A stretch of 64,000 bases of DNA from contig CALURI010000009.1 of the NCBI GenBank assembly GCA_944323135.1, forward strand, positions 1 to 64,000, written 5' to 3'. Numbering within the stretch: the first letter of the stretch is position 1; each line of letters begins with the position of its first letter. Of this stretch, positions 3 to 52,431 are shown one piece after another. The translations under genes and the position numbers were made by a program. The notes beneath the pieces are model-generated. The model made no database searches. It saw nothing but the letters and a program-made list of their open reading frames with translations, and had not been told where the DNA came from. The stretch comes from Candidatus Gastranaerophilales bacterium. GTDB taxonomy: Bacteria; Cyanobacteriota; Vampirovibrionia; Gastranaerophilales; Gastranaerophilaceae.

Positions 3-1442
3 TCAAATTAATTCTTTATATAAATTCAAATATTTTTGCGAACTTCTACCCCAAGAGAAATCAGCTTCCATTGCAGATTTTCTCATTGCATTAAATGTGT
101 ACTTATCTTGATAAACACCTAATGAGCAATAAATTGCCTGCATCATATCCCAACCAGAATACCCCCAGAATTTGAAACCGTCAGAATCATTTAAAGGATA
201 TCCGGTCACTGTATCTTCAAGCCCGCCTGTTGCTCTTACAATAGGTAATGAGCCATACCTCATTGCGATTAATTGACTTAAACCGCAAGGTTCGAACCTT
301 GAAGGCATTAAATAAAAATCACTTCCTGCATAAATTTGATTAGCTAAATCTCCACGATAACCAATATATGCTCTGATATTTGAAGAATTATTAGATAACC
401 ATATTAAAAGATTTTCATAATCTTTCTCTCCGGTTCCTAAAAAAACAAAATCAGCATTCAAACTCTTTAATTCCGATTCTGCTTGTCTTATTAAATCAAT
501 TCCTTTTTGTCCGACAAGACGAGATATCATTGCATACATAGGTCTATCAGAATTATATTTTAAGCCGAATTCTTCACAAACTTTCTTTTTATTTTCTTCT
601 TTATATTTTAATGATTTTAGATCATAATTTTTTACAATAGATTTATCAGTTTTCGGGTTAAAAACATCATAATCAATTCCGTTTAAAATTCCGACAAGTT
701 TTTGTTGATTCATACGAAGAGTATAATCCATACCCTCACCGTACTCACCTGTCAATATTTCTTTTGCATAAGTCGGAGAAACAGCAATTACTTTATCTGC
801 ATAATTAATAGCACCTTTCATCCAATTAACTTTGCCGTAATGTTCAACTCCCCATTCATTGTATACAATATCTTTTCTCATATTTGCGAAATCAAGAACA
901 TCTTCAAACCAAACACCTTGATATGCAAGATTATGAATTTCAAAAACACATTTAGTATTTTTCCAGTAATCATCAAATCTGTAGTTACTGTGAAGATAAA
1001 CCGGAATCATAGCAGTGTGCCAATCATTAGCATGAATTATGTCAGCTTTAAAATTTAATAATTTAGCATATTCCATAGTCGCAAGAGAAAATGCAATATA
1101 CCTTTCATGTTCATATTTTGTATCAAGCCATTTTGGATAAACTTCTTTAAAACAAGTAAAATACCAATCATTATGAACAAAAAATACATTAATATCAGTC
1201 CCTGGAAGCTTGCACATAAATAGTCTGAATCTGTGCCCCATTCCGTTAAAAGTAAGCCATAATGAAGAATTTTCAATTTCTTTAATTCCCCATTTATTCA
1301 CATCTATACACCCGTGTAATGGCGTAAAAATAGCAATTTGTGCATCTTTTTCTAAAAATTTTGGCAAACTTCCAACAACATCAGCTAACCCGCCAGCCTT
1401 TGAAAAAGGAGCAACTTCAACAGATGCGAATAATATCTTCAT
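3..1442 (-). CDS. glgA: Glycogen synthase (ADP-glucose type)
   Basis: This enzyme transfers glucose from ADP-glucose to the non-reducing end of alpha-1,4-glucan in the cytoplasm, for glycogen storage. The 479-residue length is normal for GT5 bacterial GlgA. The N-terminal KAGGLADV motif (Lys15) that binds the ADP-glucose phosphates is present. The C-terminal Rossmann half carries FEPCGLSQ, with the catalytic-region Glu at about 384, followed by the usual GGLEDTV segment. The stop lies at the window edge, so the gene is complete. A GAGG Shine-Dalgarno precedes the ATG. It starts 13 bases after the stop of the large zinc-ribbon gene, so the two are probably co-transcribed. Family assignment is firm. 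Confidence 0.95.
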   Translation of the reverse strand: MKILFASVEVAPFSKAGGLADVVGSLPKFLEKDAQIAIFTPLHGCIDVNKWGIKEIENSSLWLTFNGMGHRFRLFMCKLPGTDINVFFVHNDWYFTCFKEVYPKWLDTKYEHERYIAFSLATMEYAKLLNFKADIIHANDWHTAMIPVYLHSNYRFDDYWKNTKCVFEIHNLAYQGVWFEDVLDFANMRKDIVYNEWGVEHYGKVNWMKGAINYADKVIAVSPTYAKEILTGEYGEGMDYTLRMNQQKLVGILNGIDYDVFNPKTDKSIVKNYDLKSLKYKEENKKKVCEEFGLKYNSDRPMYAMISRLVGQKGIDLIRQAESELKSLNADFVFLGTGEKDYENLLIWLSNNSSNIRAYIGYRGDLANQIYAGSDFYLMPSRFEPCGLSQLIAMRYGSLPIVRATGGLEDTVTGYPLNDSDGFKFWGYSGWDMMQAIYCSLGVYQDKYTFNAMRKSAMEADFSWGRSSQKYLNLYKELI

Positions 1443-1455
1443 ACTACCTCACTTC

Positions 1456-4400
1456 CTAACCATTATTATCTTGTAATTCAACAGAATCTCCAAATATATT
1501 TGCCGCATCTTCCAAACTAACCTCATCATTTTCATCTTCTTCAATAGCGACATAATGATTTGAATCAGTATCAAATTTAAAATTAATACCGTATTTTTGA
1601 GCAACATAATTAGCTTGAGCAATACAAATATCAGCCTTGTCAAACTGCTTTTTAAACATCATTACTTTATACATATTATACTTAAATAACATAAGGAGAT
1701 ATTCACTTGTTGTATTATTTTTCTCTAACTGAATAAGAGAATTATTAATAATTCCGAATGCAACCTCATACTTGTTCTGCTTCAAATGAAGTAAACTCAT
1801 TACATACCAAGCAACATACAATAATGTTGTCATTCCGTTATTATTCGTTTCTTTAATAATTTTATAAATAATAGAATCAGCTTTCTTAAATGAACCCAAT
1901 TCCATATATGAGTAACCTATCATAAGATCAGCAAATAATTCTAATTGATGAAGTTTACAATATTTTGCAGCGATCTTAGCTTTATAAATATTTTCAGCAA
2001 ATAAATTATAATTACCGTCAAAATTAACAAATGCATTTATCAAGGATAAAATAACATTACCAAAACGATCGTTTTCTGAAATATTGACAGAAAATTTCTT
2101 AACAGCTTGACCATGAATTATATTTTGCAACACAACAAAAAGATTATAAGATTCAGGTACAAAGTCTATTTCTGCGCGCAAAATCTTTAAAAACTCATCA
2201 ACATTACCACATAATAATAAAACATTAGCCAAAGCAACATAACCTGCAGAATCAATTATCAATGAGCGAAAATCATCTTCTGACATATAATCCGGCTTAA
2301 GTATATTTATAGAATCATTATTAATAACATTCAAAACTTTATAACCGATATCCAAACAATCGCCAAGAGCACCTATATTAAACAGGATTTGAATATGAAT
2401 AACAGACATTAAAAAGAAATAACTGTTGAAATTTGGGTCATTTGGATTTAACGAAGACGGAGGAAGCAATGACAAAACCTTATGGGTTAATTCAAGAGCA
2501 TGGTTATAATTGCCCATAAACAAAGCACCGTTTATCATCTTATTGCATAATAAAATAATTTGTTCCGAATCATTTGATTTTTCGAGATTTTCCAAAGCAC
2601 TCAATGCAATAGCGGACGTTTTTACGGGCACATAATCGTATAAATTTTGAGCAATATTTTTATATAAATTTTGTTTGTATTCATCTAATCGCTCCTGCTG
2701 TTCAGGATTAGTATTTTTATCTAGCAGCTCAAGTATTTTATCAGTACAATTTAAATAAGCGCTATAATCTCCAAGAGAAAGATCGATTTCCGCTAACTGT
2801 TCCCACTGAAAACGTTCTTCATCAGTATTCCCCAACAGTCCGTACAAGTAAGCCTTGACAGGGCTTGGCATTGTATCATCAAAGATTTTTTCAAACAAAT
2901 CTTTAGCTACATCAGTTAAATAAATTTTACTTACAGTTGTCAGAAGATTATCTCTCAAAAGATTATAATTCGGGAAATAAATACAATTATTATACTCATA
3001 TATAAATCCCATATTTGAGAGTTTCTCTATAATTTCACTTTGATTTTGATACCCTAAAGCATTAACAGAAGCCATATCAACACGAGTTCCGAGCAGCACA
3101 ATTGAAGTTAAAAACTTCATGGTATCAGAATCATCTTGTAAAAGATTTAATCTTCTTGCAACTAACTTATCCAAATTAGAAGGAATTATAATAGTTTTCG
3201 GATTAACCATTTCAATACTGTCATCATCTGCTGCAAATACACCCGATTCAATCAAATATTGCATTGCTATATCAATAAACAAACTGCTCCCGCAAGCATA
3301 TTTTGCAACTCTTTGAAAATAAAAATTATTTAATATATTTCTATAATAAATTTTATTTTCTTCAATAAGTTTTTCAAAAGGAGTAGGTTTTAAAGTTATT
3401 TCTGTGTAATAAGGTTTAGCAAGTAAAAAATGACAATCCTTATGAAGTGAGAAAGATTTATCATAAGATACTAAAAAGCTGATATCAAGTTGTTCAAAAG
3501 CCTCAAATAAATATTTCAAAATATCATAAGAGCTTGAATCAATTTTATCAAAATCTTCAATAAATATTAAAGTTTTAGGAATTATTTGCAAAAGTGTTAA
3601 AAAAATCTCAAAATAAATATGCCTTGTATCGATATTATCACCATCATTACGCTTTTGCAAAGTAATTAAATCTTTTATAAGTCCGTCAGGATCAACAGAA
3701 GAAAACATTGAAAAATCATTCATAGAAAACAATTTTTGCGAAACTGTATATTCAAAAATTGCAGAAACGAGTTCTCTAAAAAAAGAATACGGAGAATATT
3801 TCATCTCATCATAACAAGTAAGAGAAATAATATTATTAAATTGACCAGTGCTTGCCGCAGTATTTAAAACTTTAATAGTATAAGGCTTATACATCTCAGC
3901 AGTTTTTATTGCAACAATCCCTTTCGGAATATTTTGGAATTTATTTAATATATGATATAACACATCAGTATTTTCAGTTCTGATAAACTCACAATTAATT
4001 TCATCAAAATTTATTGTTTCAATATCATATATTGCATCAGGATCACCCTGAGGGTCCAAATTATTCAAAGCATTTCCATCAATTTTGTCTTGTTCAACAA
4101 GCATATTTTGAACAAAATTCGGGATTTCTATTTCTTGTTCTTCTTCATCTTCAGGATATTCAATCTTAACAAATTCTCTCAAATCAACTTCGTAAAACAT
4201 TGTCATATTATCGCCGACCATAACAGAATTTAAAGGTGAAACCTTATAATCACCGCTGATTGCATCAGTTACATTATCATCAGTCAGCACCTGAAAAGTA
4301 TTTAAAATTTTATCATCTTTTACATTAGTTACTTGATTTAAAAGATTTATATTATATCCTGAATCTAAATTATACGGATCATCATCAATATTACGTTTTA

Positions 4401-4962
4401 AAAGAAACATATTACAACGAACAGTTGCATTTTTTCTGCGGGTTAACTTACAATTCATAGCAGTTATACTATTTAATAAGTCAATTGCAGCCTTTACGGC
4501 AGAAGAAGCTGAACTGTTAAATGTATAATCTTTATCAAATCTAATTACATAAGTTTTTCCGATAATTTGTCTGCGCAAACCGATTGATTTAGTATAGTCA
4601 AAAATAAGTTTATCCAGATTTACCTTAAATTTATTCAAAAGTTTTGCAGAACCAAACACATTTTTTATATCATTAATATTTGGGAAATCAATAGTAAGCA
4701 TTACAAAATCATCTGTGTTAGACTCATTCATAATAACACTTTTTTCATTATCAAATCCGCATTTTTTGCATTTTTTAGTAATAGTCTGATTTATTTTTCC
4801 GCAATTATGACATTTATTAATAATCACGTACCCGCATTTTTTACAGGTATTTGTGGTATTAATAGTTTTACAAATCGGACAGGCAAGTTTAAGCACCTTC
4901 TTACAATTAGGGCACACCATTGCTTTATCATCAATTTCATAACCGCATTTTGGACATTCCAT
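1456..4962 (-). CDS. Large zinc-ribbon protein with degenerate cyclase/ATPase-like core and TPR-like C-terminus
   Basis: The 1168 residues begin with three C4 zinc ribbons (Cys 3/6/17/20, 28/31/40/43, 51/54/65/68). Residues ~85-200 resemble a class III nucleotide cyclase, but the second metal Asp in the usual GDxxMA motif is replaced by a GKTYVI sequence. Residues ~330-560 resemble the ATPase of cyclase-linked AAA/STAND proteins: a Walker-B-like hydrophobic IFIEDFDKID lies near 465, while the expected Walker A near 345 reads KTAEMYKPY and lacks GxxGxGK. The rest (~600-1130) looks like helical repeats of TPR type. Family knowledge suggests a signalling scaffold; loss of both catalytic sites is my inference. 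It has its own promoter with no leader and lies upstream of glgA. The exact function is unknown. Confidence 0.75.
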   Translation of the reverse strand: MECPKCGYEIDDKAMVCPNCKKVLKLACPICKTINTTNTCKKCGYVIINKCHNCGKINQTITKKCKKCGFDNEKSVIMNESNTDDFVMLTIDFPNINDIKNVFGSAKLLNKFKVNLDKLIFDYTKSIGLRRQIIGKTYVIRFDKDYTFNSSASSAVKAAIDLLNSITAMNCKLTRRKNATVRCNMFLLKRNIDDDPYNLDSGYNINLLNQVTNVKDDKILNTFQVLTDDNVTDAISGDYKVSPLNSVMVGDNMTMFYEVDLREFVKIEYPEDEEEQEIEIPNFVQNMLVEQDKIDGNALNNLDPQGDPDAIYDIETINFDEINCEFIRTENTDVLYHILNKFQNIPKGIVAIKTAEMYKPYTIKVLNTAASTGQFNNIISLTCYDEMKYSPYSFFRELVSAIFEYTVSQKLFSMNDFSMFSSVDPDGLIKDLITLQKRNDGDNIDTRHIYFEIFLTLLQIIPKTLIFIEDFDKIDSSSYDILKYLFEAFEQLDISFLVSYDKSFSLHKDCHFLLAKPYYTEITLKPTPFEKLIEENKIYYRNILNNFYFQRVAKYACGSSLFIDIAMQYLIESGVFAADDDSIEMVNPKTIIIPSNLDKLVARRLNLLQDDSDTMKFLTSIVLLGTRVDMASVNALGYQNQSEIIEKLSNMGFIYEYNNCIYFPNYNLLRDNLLTTVSKIYLTDVAKDLFEKIFDDTMPSPVKAYLYGLLGNTDEERFQWEQLAEIDLSLGDYSAYLNCTDKILELLDKNTNPEQQERLDEYKQNLYKNIAQNLYDYVPVKTSAIALSALENLEKSNDSEQIILLCNKMINGALFMGNYNHALELTHKVLSLLPPSSLNPNDPNFNSYFFLMSVIHIQILFNIGALGDCLDIGYKVLNVINNDSINILKPDYMSEDDFRSLIIDSAGYVALANVLLLCGNVDEFLKILRAEIDFVPESYNLFVVLQNIIHGQAVKKFSVNISENDRFGNVILSLINAFVNFDGNYNLFAENIYKAKIAAKYCKLHQLELFADLMIGYSYMELGSFKKADSIIYKIIKETNNNGMTTLLYVAWYVMSLLHLKQNKYEVAFGIINNSLIQLEKNNTTSEYLLMLFKYNMYKVMMFKKQFDKADICIAQANYVAQKYGINFKFDTDSNHYVAIEEDENDEVSLEDAANIFGDSVELQDNNG

Positions 4963-4968
4963 AATAAA

Positions 4969-4997
4969 ATTATACCACTCTGTAAACTATGACACAA
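4969..4997 (-). promoter_or_regulatory. Sigma-70-type promoter, apparently leaderless
   Basis: On the minus strand TTGTGT and TATAAT are separated by exactly 17 bases, with TG one base before the -10 (extended -10). The -10 ends six bases before the ATG at 4962. A transcript starting at the usual distance would begin at the start codon itself. No Shine-Dalgarno is present. Confidence 0.65.
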
Positions 4998-5024
4998 GGT
5001 AATTTATTCCTCTAAAAAGAGTAT

Positions 5025-6194
5025 TTAGCAGTATCTGATACCTGCTTCTTTCATCCTTCTTATGCATTCTTTTATTGTATCAACATCTTTGGTCAGTGCA
5101 ACACGGAAATAACCTTCTCCGTATTTTCCGTATCCGTTTCCTGCAGGTACAACAACATGAGCTTTTTCAAGCATTAATGTAACAAACTCTTCTGATGTCA
5201 TTCCTTTTGGTACAGGAAGCCACAAATAAAAAGTTGCTTTTGCGGGTTTTACATTCCAGCCCAATTCTCTAAAGCCTTCTTCTGCAGCATCTCTGCGTTC
5301 TTGATACATTTTATTTAAATCAGCAATATATTTTGGATCAATATTAAAAGCAACCGCTGCAGCATCTTGAATAGCTTTAAAAGTACCTGAATCAATATTA
5401 TTTTTAATAGTTCCAAGAGCTTTTACAGCATCAGCATTACCGCATACGAAACCTACCCTCCATCCTGTCATATTGTATGATTTTGAATGAGAATAAAATT
5501 CCAAAGCTACATCTTTCGCACCTTCTACCTGCAAAACAGACGGAGCTTTATAACCGTCATAAGTCATTTCAGAATATGCCATATCAGAGCATAATAAAAT
5601 ATCATATTTCTTACAAAAATCAACAGCTTTTTTATAAAAATCCAAATCGGCAACAGCACCTGTCGGATTGTTTGGATAATTTAAAAACATAATTTTAGAT
5701 TTTTTCGCAATATCAGCAGGAATTTTATCAAAATCCGGAAGATATCCGTTTTCTTCCAACAAAGGCATTTCATAAGGAGTTCCGCCTGCAAAAATTGTTG
5801 CATTGTGATAAACCGGATACCCTGGATCAGGAACTAAAGTATAATCGCCTTTATCAACATAAGCTAAAAATACATGCGCAATAGCTTCTTTTGAACCGAT
5901 ATTTGCAAGCATTTCAGTATCAGGATCAAGTTCAACCCCAAAACGTTTTTTCATCCAATCACAAGCACCTTTTCGGAATTTTGCAGTACCATTATAAGGA
6001 GGATAATCATGATTTTTAGGATTGTCAATTGCTCTGTGCATTTCCTCAACAACAGGAGCTAAAGTCGGAGTATCAGGATCACCAATTCCCAAACTTATTA
6101 TATCAATGCCTTTTGCTCTTGCTTCGGCAATTTTTCTGTCTATTTCCGCAAACAAATAAGGCGGGATTAATTCCAAACGTTCTGATACTTTCAT
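5025..6194 (-). CDS. dapL: LL-diaminopimelate aminotransferase
   Basis: DapL converts tetrahydrodipicolinate to LL-diaminopimelate in one PLP-dependent step, bypassing the succinylase/acetylase routes to lysine and peptidoglycan. The 389-residue protein is a fold-type I aminotransferase. It shows NYPNNPTG (Asn175 region), the SHSKSYNMTGWR motif with the PLP lysine at 238, and the ISLGIGDPDTPT N-terminus typical of DapL. A strong AGAAGGAGATATT ribosome site sets the start. DapL is the route used by cyanobacteria, plants and chlamydiae, which fits the lineage. A related aspartate/alanine-type aminotransferase is the alternative, but the N-terminal signature favours DapL. Confidence 0.88.
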   Translation of the reverse strand: MKVSERLELIPPYLFAEIDRKIAEARAKGIDIISLGIGDPDTPTLAPVVEEMHRAIDNPKNHDYPPYNGTAKFRKGACDWMKKRFGVELDPDTEMLANIGSKEAIAHVFLAYVDKGDYTLVPDPGYPVYHNATIFAGGTPYEMPLLEENGYLPDFDKIPADIAKKSKIMFLNYPNNPTGAVADLDFYKKAVDFCKKYDILLCSDMAYSEMTYDGYKAPSVLQVEGAKDVALEFYSHSKSYNMTGWRVGFVCGNADAVKALGTIKNNIDSGTFKAIQDAAAVAFNIDPKYIADLNKMYQERRDAAEEGFRELGWNVKPAKATFYLWLPVPKGMTSEEFVTLMLEKAHVVVPAGNGYGKYGEGYFRVALTKDVDTIKECIRRMKEAGIRYC

Positions 6195-6262
6195 AATATC
6201 TCCTTCTTAATATTCTTTCCTAACATTTAAATTTATGCTATCATAAATATAAAGGAAAAACA

Positions 6263-7339
6263 ATGAGTATAATAGCAGATGACAACGATTTTCAAAATAA
6301 AACAATAACCGAAAAAAAGAAAAATTCGGTTTTAAAATCAGAATGCATTGACAATGATAAAAATTTTGAGAATTGTATTCGTCCAAAAACTTTTGACACA
6401 TATATAGGACAATCTGCCTTAAAAGAAACATTAAAAATTTCTATTGCCGCGGCTAAAAAAAGAGGGCTTCCGCTTGATCATTTACTATTTTACGGCCCAC
6501 CGGGATTAGGTAAAACTACTCTGGCAGGTGTGATTGCAGGGCAAATGGGAGTGGATATAAAAATCACATCAGCACCTGCTTTAGAACGTCCGAGAGATAT
6601 TATCGGGATTTTAATGTCACTAAAAGGCGGAGAAATTCTATTTATTGATGAAATCCACAGACTAAATAAAGTTGCAGAAGAAATTTTGTACCCCGCAATG
6701 GAAGATTTCTTCTTGGACATGACAACAGGCAAATCTCAAACAGTAAAGACATTACGAATACCTCTCCCAAAATTTACATTGATTGGAGCTACTACAAAAG
6801 CCGGAGAGCTTTCAGGTCCATTACGCGATCGTTTTGGGATTATCCACAGACTTGAATTTTACACAGAAGAAGAACTATCGCAAGTTATAAAAAGGACTGC
6901 AGAAATTTTAAATATCGAAATAACAGAAGAAGGAGCACATGCTATTGCAAAAAGATCACGCGGCACTCCTCGTATAGCAAACAGACTTGTCAAAAGAGTT
7001 TCTGACTATGCTTTAGTAAAACACGACGGCAAAATTACGGAAGATGTAGCAAACAAATCTCTCGACATATTAAAAATAGACAATTTCGGGCTTGATAATA
7101 CAGATAGGAGCCTTTTAAGACTAATTATTGAAAAATATGACGGCGGTCCTGTCGGTATAGAAACAATTGCTGCAGCAATAGGAGAAGATGTAAGAACAAT
7201 TGAAGATGTCTGTGAACCCTTCTTGCTTCAGGCAGGCTTGTTGCAACGCACACCTCGCGGAAGAAAAGTTTCCCCTGAGACATATAGACACCTAGGATAC
7301 AAAAACTCAAATAATAATGAACAACAAAGTTTATTCTAA
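6263..7339 (+). CDS. ruvB: Holliday junction branch migration helicase RuvB
   Basis: RuvB is the AAA+ motor that with RuvA drives branch migration of Holliday junctions. The 358-residue protein has Walker A GPPGLGKT at 78-85, Walker B with Asp129-Glu130 in FIDEIHRLN, the sensor segment [12 protein letters not shown], and the C-terminal winged helix with [10 protein letters not shown]. The N-terminal ~35 residues are a poorly conserved Lys/Asn-rich extension longer than in E. coli. An AAAGGA site precedes the ATG. It is divergent from dapL. ruvA is not in the window. Confidence 0.97.
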
Positions 7340-41473: not shown

Positions 41474-42170
41474 TTAAATTCTTCTGGGATAACTTTTTAA
41501 GATTTTCCAACCATCACGCATTATTAATGCCGTACAGTAATTTTTATTAGTTGATGAGCAATAATTTATAAGTGTTTCTCGACTAATAGTATCAATATTA
41601 TTACCATAAGGCTTTAATCTATTTTGAGGTGTAAAACGAAATGTAAAATATTTTCTGCCGCAACAATCTCTTGAAGCACTACCAGAAGAATTTACCATAC
41701 AATATTCAATATCAGAAACATTTGGGAAAAAATATATATCAAAATTAGTTACAGAAGACTTATCACCAAAACGCATTCCAAATGCACTCCCATCTGACAG
41801 TTTTATATAACGGGTATAAGAATAGTTTGGCAAAACAATAATATCTTTTGATGTAAAAAATTCTGCCAAATATTTATTAAACCAATCAATAGAACCCGAT
41901 GGAGAATCCAAATCAGCATTATCCCAATACTCTACTTCACCATATTTGTTTTCAGCCAAAAGTATTGCTTGATTAAAAGTGGTATAAAATTTCTGTAAAC
42001 GAGTTTCAATAACTTGCTTTCTATGGTTTGAAATTAAAACAGGCAAAGTTAATGCAGCGACTACTCCAATAACACCAATAGTAATTAAAACCTCAGCAAG
42101 CGTAAACCCTTGAGAGAAAGCTCTTAAACGCCCCCCCCCCGACGTTAAAATACTTTTCAATCATCTTCAT
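41474..42170 (-). pseudogene. Type IV prepilin-like protein, out of frame by a G10 tract (probably phase-variable)
   Basis: The ATG at 42170 has a good AAAGGAG ribosome site and encodes MKMIEKYFNV, then meets ten consecutive Gs (42131-42140 as Cs on the plus strand). With ten Gs this frame ends at a TGA 13 codons past the tract. With nine or twelve Gs it would continue into RLRAFSQGFTLAEVLITIGVIG, a textbook class III prepilin leader, and on through a ~230-residue pilin-like protein with C-terminal cysteine pairs. As it stands, only a TTG at 42160 lacking a ribosome site could reach the pilin frame. I read it as an off-phase gene rather than a dead one; a sequencing error in the tract is the alternative. 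Confidence 0.75.
42131..42140. repeat. Homopolymer C10/G10 tract
   Basis: Ten consecutive Cs lie inside the 5' coding region of the prepilin gene. No other run longer than five G/C was noticed in this AT-rich window. Tracts of this length slip readily during replication. Confidence 0.9.
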
Positions 42171-42209
42171 ACTTATTGCTCCTTTTTTAATTAACAATTC
42201 AATTATAAA

Positions 42210-50872: not shown

Positions 50873-51736
50873 ATGAAAATATTATTTTGTACTGACGGTT
50901 CAAAAATCAGCTTTAATGCAATACATAACATTTCCAATTGGATTAAAAATGCTGAAGTAGACACTATTTGCGTTATTGATTGGAGTTTTTTGCCTGAAGA
51001 AATTAATATTGAAGATAAAAATTTTACTCACTCTTGTACAAATATGGCAGATACGATACTTAATTATGCAAAAAATGAAATAACAAAGCTTAATATGAAA
51101 AACGGGGAACTTATAAAAAGCTGCGGTTCAGCAATAGAAGGAATAATTGAGCAATCAGACAAAAAAGATTATGATTTAATATTAATGGGCTCACACGGCA
51201 AAAAAGGTATGCAAAAATGGTTAGGTTCTGTATCACAATCTATAATTAATAACAGCGAAATTTCTGATTATATCGCCAAAGAAGAAAATAAAGGAGAAAA
51301 AGTTTTATTAACAACTGACGGAACAATGTGTTCTCTTGAAATAATGAAGAAAATAATCCCTAATATGAACTTTAAAGATAAAGAAATTCACATCTGCATG
51401 GTAAATGAAGACCCTAATTTCCTTTTTCTTGACGGCACATTAGACACAAACTGGTTGCTTGATATACAGAAACAACAACAAATTTATGCAGCAAAAGCGA
51501 TAGAAAATATAAAAAATATACTTTCTAAAGAAAACATAATTGTAAATGAAACATCTATCTTAAGCGGCATACCTGCACAAAAAATAATAGATTATGCAAG
51601 AACAAGAGAAATCGACCTAATAATTATGGGACATAAAAACAAGACTAAACTTGACAGATTTTTAACAGGCTCTGTCAGTAAACGGGTTCTTGAAAATGTA
51701 GTAAGCGATATTTGGCTTGCAAGATGTAAAAATTAA
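50873..51736 (+). CDS. Tandem universal stress protein
   Basis: The 287-residue protein has two UspA domains (~1-130 and ~140-286). The first has the full ATP-binding G-x2-G-x9-G-S motif (GSHGKKGMQKWLGS). The second has GHKNKTKLDRFLTGS, in which the second Gly is Asn, so it may bind nucleotide weakly. AAAGGAG precedes the ATG. Cytoplasmic stress role is by family. The stop overlaps the convergent prepilin stop by TTAA. Confidence 0.87.
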   Translation: MKILFCTDGSKISFNAIHNISNWIKNAEVDTICVIDWSFLPEEINIEDKNFTHSCTNMADTILNYAKNEITKLNMKNGELIKSCGSAIEGIIEQSDKKDYDLILMGSHGKKGMQKWLGSVSQSIINNSEISDYIAKEENKGEKVLLTTDGTMCSLEIMKKIIPNMNFKDKEIHICMVNEDPNFLFLDGTLDTNWLLDIQKQQQIYAAKAIENIKNILSKENIIVNETSILSGIPAQKIIDYARTREIDLIIMGHKNKTKLDRFLTGSVSKRVLENVVSDIWLARCKN

Positions 51737-52431
51737 TAAGGCATTTCCCAATTATTATTTAAGATTAAACCGAAACAGCCTTTTGCATCGGATCTTGTAG
51801 CACAAGAAGCACCAACTGCCGTTCTAACATCTTTGGCATTTGTTTTTCCAGAACCGCATGATGTGCCTGATGTTCTGCATTCCGGCGGAATACCATCTTC
51901 ATCAATTGTACCATCACTATAATAAGTTACAAAATACAAGTCACGACCTGCTACATTAGGGCCTGCTTTACCGTTAATATCAATTGTTATATGCCCACTA
52001 GATGTATGATATTTGGAATGTTCAAAACATAAAGAAGCACCATTTGCAATTACAAAACAAGGGGCATTAGAACTTCCTGCCCAATAACTACCATTAGTCA
52101 ATTCTGTACCGTTCATATTTTTATATTTACCATCATAAAAACAATCAGTAAAATTTGTACAAGATTGAACAACTTTAAAATAAGTATTTACAAAATTTCT
52201 AACTTCTGCAGAAGATGTTAAACCTGCTTCATGGAGATTCAAAGCATTTTTATCATTAGTATATTCTAAAAAAGCTTGTGATAACAGGTTATAAACTTGA
52301 TGAAGCTGAGTAACATAAGTTTTTCTTTGATGATTCTGCATCAAAGTAGGAATAGTCATAGCAGAAACAACCCCAATAATACCTAATGTTACCAAAACTT
52401 CTGCTAAAGTAAAAGCAAATATTTTTTTCAT
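51733..52431 (-). CDS. Type IV prepilin-like protein
   Basis: The 232-residue protein starts MKKIFAFTLAEVLVTLGIIGVVSAMTIPTL, a short class III leader cleaved before Phe and N-methylated by PilD, followed by the hydrophobic assembly helix. The C-terminal domain has several cysteines (ECRTSGTSCGSG; ASCATRSDAKGCFG) that probably form disulfides. It resembles the gene at 41474 but has no G tract and is intact. It should sit in pili or a pseudopilus. Confidence 0.87.
   Translation of the reverse strand: MKKIFAFTLAEVLVTLGIIGVVSAMTIPTLMQNHQRKTYVTQLHQVYNLLSQAFLEYTNDKNALNLHEAGLTSSAEVRNFVNTYFKVVQSCTNFTDCFYDGKYKNMNGTELTNGSYWAGSSNAPCFVIANGASLCFEHSKYHTSSGHITIDINGKAGPNVAGRDLYFVTYYSDGTIDEDGIPPECRTSGTSCGSGKTNAKDVRTAVGASCATRSDAKGCFGLILNNNWEMPY

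What the first reader, a model, noticed from the sequence alone, without database searches (positions are those of the whole stretch)
41474..42170. A prepilin gene switched out of frame by a G10 tract: a likely phase-variable locus
The ATG at 42170 with its AAAGGAG site leads through MKMIEKYFNV into ten Gs. In the present state the frame ends at a TGA 13 codons past the tract; with nine or twelve Gs it would read straight into the FTLAEVLI prepilin leader and the ~230-residue pilin-like protein. Homopolymer G tracts near a 5' end are the classic slipped-strand contingency mechanism (Neisseria, Campylobacter, Helicobacter). I know of no such description for Melainabacteria. An AT-rich genome makes a chance G10 here improbable.
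Basis: partly seen in the sequence, partly recalled or inferred. Interest (0 to 1): 0.78.

Follow-up and report, generated by a model that had tools for sequence, protein, structure and literature searches.

The report
Genome-wide one-base-short G-tract prepilin array
In a gut-dwelling, non-photosynthetic relative of cyanobacteria, about 55 separate pilus-type surface-protein genes each carry a run of about ten Gs or Cs near the start that leaves nearly all of them one base out of frame, so most of the repertoire looks switched off by default and able to be switched on by a one-base slip.

Summary
The window's G10 (42131-42140, minus strand) is one of 59 G/C runs of 8 or more in this 1.95-Mb genome; 50 are exactly 10 long (about 0.1 runs of 10 expected). 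Fifty-five lie between a start codon and a prepilin FTLAEV motif. Over 8 species of the genus, 139 of 147 open leaders need 11 bases, 125 of these have 10, and only 5 of 147 are in frame. The bodies are intact and under purifying selection (median dN/dS 0.21). In a 5.4-kb block shared by two species with 7 substitutions, the only indel is such a tract: C10 (OFF) versus C11 (ON). G lies on the positive-GC-skew replication strand whichever way the gene points. Two species of another genus have length 10 but in frame, which argues against a systematic undercall. Best explanation: replication-slippage phase variation of a large prepilin repertoire whose commonest length is OFF. The one-sided target (+1) is unexplained and keeps programmed -1 frameshifting alive. 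The window's own gene is atypical: it needs 9 or 12. No reads were available, so switching within a clone is inferred.

The parts
42179..42185 (-). Ribosome-binding site AAAGGAG
   Evidence: sequence; 8 nt before the ATG
42093..42170 (-). Leader reading frame in the present (G10) state: ATG to TGA, 25 codons (MKMIEKYFNVGGGAFKSFLSRVYAC)
42131..42140 (-). G10 tract flanked by C on both sides (C-G10-C)
   Evidence: same flanks in other lineages
42107..42130 (-). 24-nt spacer between tract and prepilin motif; one base shorter than in a similar leader (L184), so the in-frame length is 9 or 12 instead of 11
41474..42106 (-). Prepilin body FTLAEVLITIGVIGVVAALT..., 210 residues, with stop codon; N_methyl (PF07963) and DUF6613 (PF20318)
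   Evidence: predicted long N-terminal helix plus sheet domain
42158..42160 (-). In-frame TTG (possible alternative start for the prepilin frame), without a ribosome site at the usual distance

Best explanation
This is one member of a genome-wide array of prepilin-like genes controlled by slipped-strand DNA phase variation. Each gene has an added leader (start codon, about 10 codons, G10 or C10, spacer) in front of the prepilin cleavage and methylation motif. Replication slippage changes the run by one base and joins or separates the leader frame and the prepilin frame. The usual length, 10, is OFF in nearly all members and 11 is ON, so a cell would express a small, changing subset of about 55 surface pilins (one relative has about 165 tracts). 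Shown here: the tracts, their near-constant length, the shared frame offset, intact and conserved bodies, replication-strand polarity, and a one-base tract difference between near-identical alleles. Inferred: switching within a clone, export as pili, and a benefit from varying the surface in the gut. The window gene is a variant that needs 9 or 12.
For: 55 of 59 tracts are in prepilin leaders. 54 of 55 leaders are open at some tract length, 49 of them at 11. Pooled over 8 species only 5 of 147 are in frame (P about 2e-19 for random phase). Bodies are intact and under purifying selection, median dN/dS 0.21 over 34 pairs. A 5.4-kb near-identical block has 7 substitutions and one indel, which is the tract: C10 versus C11. 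Near-identical leaders in one assembly read 11 and 10 (L058, L059) or 10 and 9 (L068, L069). In-frame 11-mers occur in several species. G lies on the positive-skew strand whatever the gene direction, which fits a replication-linked process. 21 of 55 genes have no start codon at all in the prepilin frame as assembled.
Against: No reads were seen, so length mixtures within a population are not shown. The target is one-sided (11 in 139 of 147) although 9-mers are at least as frequent as 11-mers; plain slippage should accept a target of 9 as well. The length distribution is narrow. Two species in genus g18 have length 10 in frame, so default OFF is not universal.
Confidence: 0.7

Rival explanations
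1. Programmed recoding: the run is held at 10 and the ribosome slips back one base on the G or C run (or RNA polymerase adds a base), so a set fraction of full product is made from every gene without a DNA change.
For: The needed shift is always the -1 direction: target 11 with length 10 in 125 of 147, in all six phase classes and through about 50 distinct tract-to-motif spacings. G10 and C10 contain slippery heptamers. Type A messages have a weak downstream pairing of the G run (mean z about -1).
Against: Does not explain why G keeps to one replication strand in both gene directions, why 10 is also used in frame in G125 and G072, or the C10/C11 allele pair. A heptamer would suffice, yet the run is 10. 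Type B has no comparable downstream pairing.
Confidence: 0.2
2. Sequencing or assembly undercall: the true length is 11 everywhere and the genes are simply in frame.
For: Would explain the one-sided target and the narrow length. G runs disturb Illumina reads, and database G-tract lengths can be off (PMC9187656). In G001 the 12- and 13-mers would mostly be rescued by adding 2.
Against: The same assemblies contain 11- to 15-mers. Identical contexts in one assembly read 11 and 10. G125 and G072 in frame, 9 of 9. The same length recurs in many separately assembled genomes.
Confidence: 0.06
3. Internal or alternative starts make the tract irrelevant: the prepilin is translated from its own start after the tract, or from TTG 42160 in the window gene.
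For: 13 of 55 genes keep an in-frame start with a ribosome site after the tract, in several cases after a promoter-like TATAAT. The window gene has an in-frame TTG.
Against: 21 of 55 have no start codon in the prepilin frame and 19 have only starts without a ribosome site. The long leader is kept open in 54 of 55.
Confidence: 0.04

Closest known systems
G-tract replication-slippage ON/OFF switch of sortase-dependent pili in Bifidobacterium breve (PMC9187656)
   Same: Gut commensal; pilus genes; [quoted passage not shown] two reading frames joined by slippage; annotated length is often OFF
   Different: Two loci and sortase pilins there; here about 55 unlinked prepilin genes, C as well as G sense, uniform length and frame offset, and a replication-strand rule. 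Switching was measured there and not here
Poly-G/poly-C contingency loci of Campylobacter jejuni (29 tracts of 7 or more in NCTC11168, PMC4965091)
   Same: Many G/C tracts per genome in coding frames, lengths centred near 9-10
   Different: Mostly surface-modification enzymes with varied lengths there; here one protein family, one dominant length, one dominant frame offset
Phase-variable genes of Neisseria meningitidis (PMC5084427)
   Same: Dozens of repeat-controlled surface genes, G/C tracts most frequent among the strong candidates
   Different: Mixed repeat types and gene families; no shared leader module
Type IV prepilins (PF07963 N_methyl) with DUF6613 bodies (PF20318)
   Same: FTLAEVLI motif after G or A, long N-terminal helix; one prepilin peptidase gene found
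   Different: Tract-bearing members have long added leaders (about 18-85 residues); ordinary members here have short ones, about 6-15
Programmed -1 ribosomal frameshift genes
   Same: Slippery run, constant shift direction
   Different: Strand polarity, in-frame use of the same length in another genus, and tract length alleles are not features of that class

Membership tests
Simple-sequence-repeat (slipped-strand) phase-variable locus | Unstable-length G/C tract within the 5' coding region | tested here: met
   G10 at 42131-42140 and 54 further prepilin loci
Simple-sequence-repeat (slipped-strand) phase-variable locus | One-base changes move the gene between full-length and truncated frames | tested here: met
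   54 of 55 leaders open at one length class and truncated at others; window gene open at 9 or 12
Simple-sequence-repeat (slipped-strand) phase-variable locus | Tract length differs between otherwise near-identical alleles | tested here: met
   C10 versus C11 in a 5.4-kb block with 7 substitutions; shown for a sister locus (L048), not for the window locus itself
Simple-sequence-repeat (slipped-strand) phase-variable locus | Reversible switching within a clone | not testable with these tools
   no reads or cultures
Type IV prepilin family (PF07963) | N-terminal cleavage/methylation motif and hydrophobic helix | tested here: met
   N_methyl 22.5 bits over cut-off 21.2 for the 231-residue G9-frame protein; helix 3-55 in the model
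Type IV prepilin family (PF07963) | Prepilin peptidase in the genome | tested here: met
   one PF01478 match above cut-off
Type IV prepilin family (PF07963) | Pilin fold match among solved structures | tested here: inconclusive
   no significant hit; PAK pilin 1oqw at rank 5, E 1.6
Programmed -1 ribosomal frameshifting | Slippery site with a constant -1 direction | tested here: met
   139 of 147 leaders need +1 base, equal to -1 slippage; the window gene itself does not (it needs 9 or 12)
Programmed -1 ribosomal frameshifting | Stimulatory downstream structure | tested here: inconclusive
   weak signal in type A only
Programmed -1 ribosomal frameshifting | Frameshifted product from an unaltered gene | not testable with these tools
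   needs protein data

The most novel reading that the evidence does not exclude
The C-G10-C tract is a DNA element held at length 10 and fixed in orientation to the replication fork. It has spread onto dozens of prepilin genes in both coding directions and sets a shared one-base-short default. Low basal expression by -1 frameshifting and full expression by replication slippage would together make a repertoire-wide, default-off pilin display.
Probability: 0.22. Interest if true: 0.92.

Novelty: new variant of a known kind. Interest (0 to 1): 0.8.

Why it matters
It suggests that uncultured gut Gastranaerophilales keep a very large, mostly silent set of pilus-type surface proteins that can be sampled by one-base slips; my searches found no report of phase variation in this lineage. 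One protein family, one length, one frame offset and one replication-strand orientation over scores of loci make a natural experiment on tract equilibrium length and strand-dependent slippage. It also warns that such genes will be annotated as truncated genes or pseudogenes.

Tried and rejected
SD sequestration by the downstream GCTCCT (an early idea): own pairs are no better than shuffled pairs (5.33 versus 5.22), so dropped. My first hand count that G10 copies were in frame was wrong; the scripted check shows they need 11. Assembly breaks at tracts as evidence of polymorphism: ambiguous, because G runs also cause read errors, so not used. Ortholog comparison of the window locus: mostly distant relatives at 31-37 percent identity and one partial match at 71 percent (L112, no tract found in that stretch); one distant relative (L111) has a G11 tract that needs 10 or 13, and the others show no tract. 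G002 is not a close relative overall; the near-identical stretch is a recombined block or a contig binned from another strain. Structure search of the window pilin gave no significant match.

Full report
Observation. The minus-strand sequence is as reported: ribosome site, ATG 42170, ten codons, G10 at 42140-42131, TGA thirteen codons later, and a prepilin frame from 42106 that is reached with 9 or 12 Gs. The run is the only G or C run above 5 in a 31.6 percent GC window. A run of 10 is expected 0.003 times in the window and 0.1 times in the genome.

Scale. The genome (1.95 Mb, 34 contigs) has 59 runs of 8 or more, 50 of exactly 10. Fifty-five stand between a start codon and an FTLAEV prepilin motif: 33 with G in the sense strand (type A, leaders such as MERLLNTENSGGGAHLSSYKG|FTLAEVLI when 11 long) and 22 with C (type B, such as MNLKALRVAPPPAKVAWDKGFNG|FTLAEVLI). 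The genome has 89 hits to the FTLAEV DNA pattern. Prepilins without a tract have short in-frame leaders in the genomes examined, and so has the second prepilin of the window, starting at 52431.

Frame logic. Of 55, 54 give an open leader at some length, and 49 need 11 (or 8). Forty-five of those 49 are 10, three are 9, and one, L058, is 11 and in frame. Over eight species of the genus 139 of 147 need 11, 125 of them are 10, and five of the 147 are in frame; the chance of so few at random phase is about 2e-19 (paralogs are not independent, so this is indicative). The target is kept in all six phase classes of both types and through about 50 different tract-to-motif distances. Bodies are full length in G000, and 34 close pairs over several genomes give median dN/dS 0.21, so the genes must be expressed at least sometimes.

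DNA-level variation. G002 contig C19 and G000 contig C3 share a block of about 5.4 kb with seven substitutions; the only indel is the C tract, 10 in G000 (OFF) and 11 in G002 (ON). Within one assembly, near-identical leaders read 11 and 10 (L058, L059) or 10 and 9 (L068, L069). In-frame 11-mers occur in several other species.

Strand polarity. Within each G000 contig all tracts have G on the same strand although genes point both ways. In G006 the G strand flips where GC skew flips, and in a further sample of other genera 41 of 43 agree with skew. So gene direction decides whether a gene carries G or C, and the tract keeps its direction to the fork. Skew itself favours this, by my estimate to about 88 percent, so part of it may be compositional. 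The flanks are C-G10-C in nearly all copies of all lineages, and in this genome an [AG]GCT follows on the G strand 7-10 nt after the run in 32 of 33 type A and 18 of 22 type B copies.

Spread. In 155 genomes of the order, nearly all sampled members of the window's genus have CG10C sites, mostly dozens; elsewhere only a few genera have more than one or two. In G054 (another genus) 26 of 26 need 11: 24 are 10 and OFF, two are 11 and ON. In G125 and G072 nine of nine are 10 and in frame, while G069 of the same genus has eight needing 11 and one needing 10. The length 10 is thus constant while the frame target differs, which argues against a uniform undercall and for control of length at the DNA level. 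G001 is a different case: 12- and 13-mers, eight of eight OFF, plus tracts on mixed strands in a gene cluster at C4 51-80 kb that I did not annotate.

Origin. Thirteen genes still have an in-frame start with a ribosome site between tract and motif, in several cases after a promoter-like TATAAT; others of the same spacing class have lost it. Nearest body relatives often carry the other tract type (33 of 121). I infer that leader-plus-tract modules were placed in front of ordinary prepilin genes and became their start.

Mechanism. I favour replication slippage with length 10 as the usual, OFF state. The unexplained point is direction: under plain slippage a target of 9 should serve as well as 11, yet 11 dominates. 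Programmed -1 frameshifting would give that direction, but not the strand rule, the in-frame use of 10 in genus g18, or the allele pair. Both may act.

The window gene. Compared with a similar leader (L184 in G006) its tract-to-motif spacer is one base shorter, so it needs 9 or 12; only three other open leaders in this genome (L044, L047, L076) share that target. It belongs to the array but is not its best example.

Known work. Searches found no paper on phase variation in Gastranaerophilales or Melainabacteria, within the open-access library only. Partial pilus gene sets have been noted (PMC5877343). The closest system is the Bifidobacterium pilus switch (PMC9187656), then C. jejuni (PMC4965091) and N. 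meningitidis (PMC5084427).

Noticed in passing
window 51733-52431, minus strand: A second prepilin gene in the window (MKKIFA|FTLAEVLV, 226-residue body) with an ordinary short leader and no tract.
   Followed up: partly
L280 (G002:C19) about 1020-6465 against L281 (G000:C3): A 5.4-kb stretch with only 7 substitutions between two genomes whose flanks are clearly more divergent: a recent recombination or transfer, or a mis-binned contig.
   Followed up: partly
L230-L240 (G001:C4, about 51-80 kb): G001 has long G runs (9-15) on mixed strands inside a cluster of non-prepilin genes, several directly after ATG; looks like classical contingency loci.
   Followed up: no
L032, L058, L059, L060 between tract and FTLAEV: A promoter-like TATAAT followed by an inverted repeat of the form GTGAT-ATCAC and a ribosome site recurs between tract and prepilin start in many genes, also in type B leaders; a possible operator.
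   Followed up: no
G021 (same genus): 125 FTLAEV pattern hits but only 4 G8+ tracts: a large prepilin set that seems to do without the tract, or whose tracts fell into assembly gaps.
   Followed up: partly
type A loci in G000, G003, G006, G054, G069, G125/G072: A pyrimidine stretch such as CTCCT or TCTCC about 10 nt after the G run in several genera, able to pair weakly with it (mean z about -0.6 to -1.2).
   Followed up: partly
L038, L052, L057, L089 (G000): Four G9-G11 tracts not linked to a prepilin motif within the distance searched.
   Followed up: no
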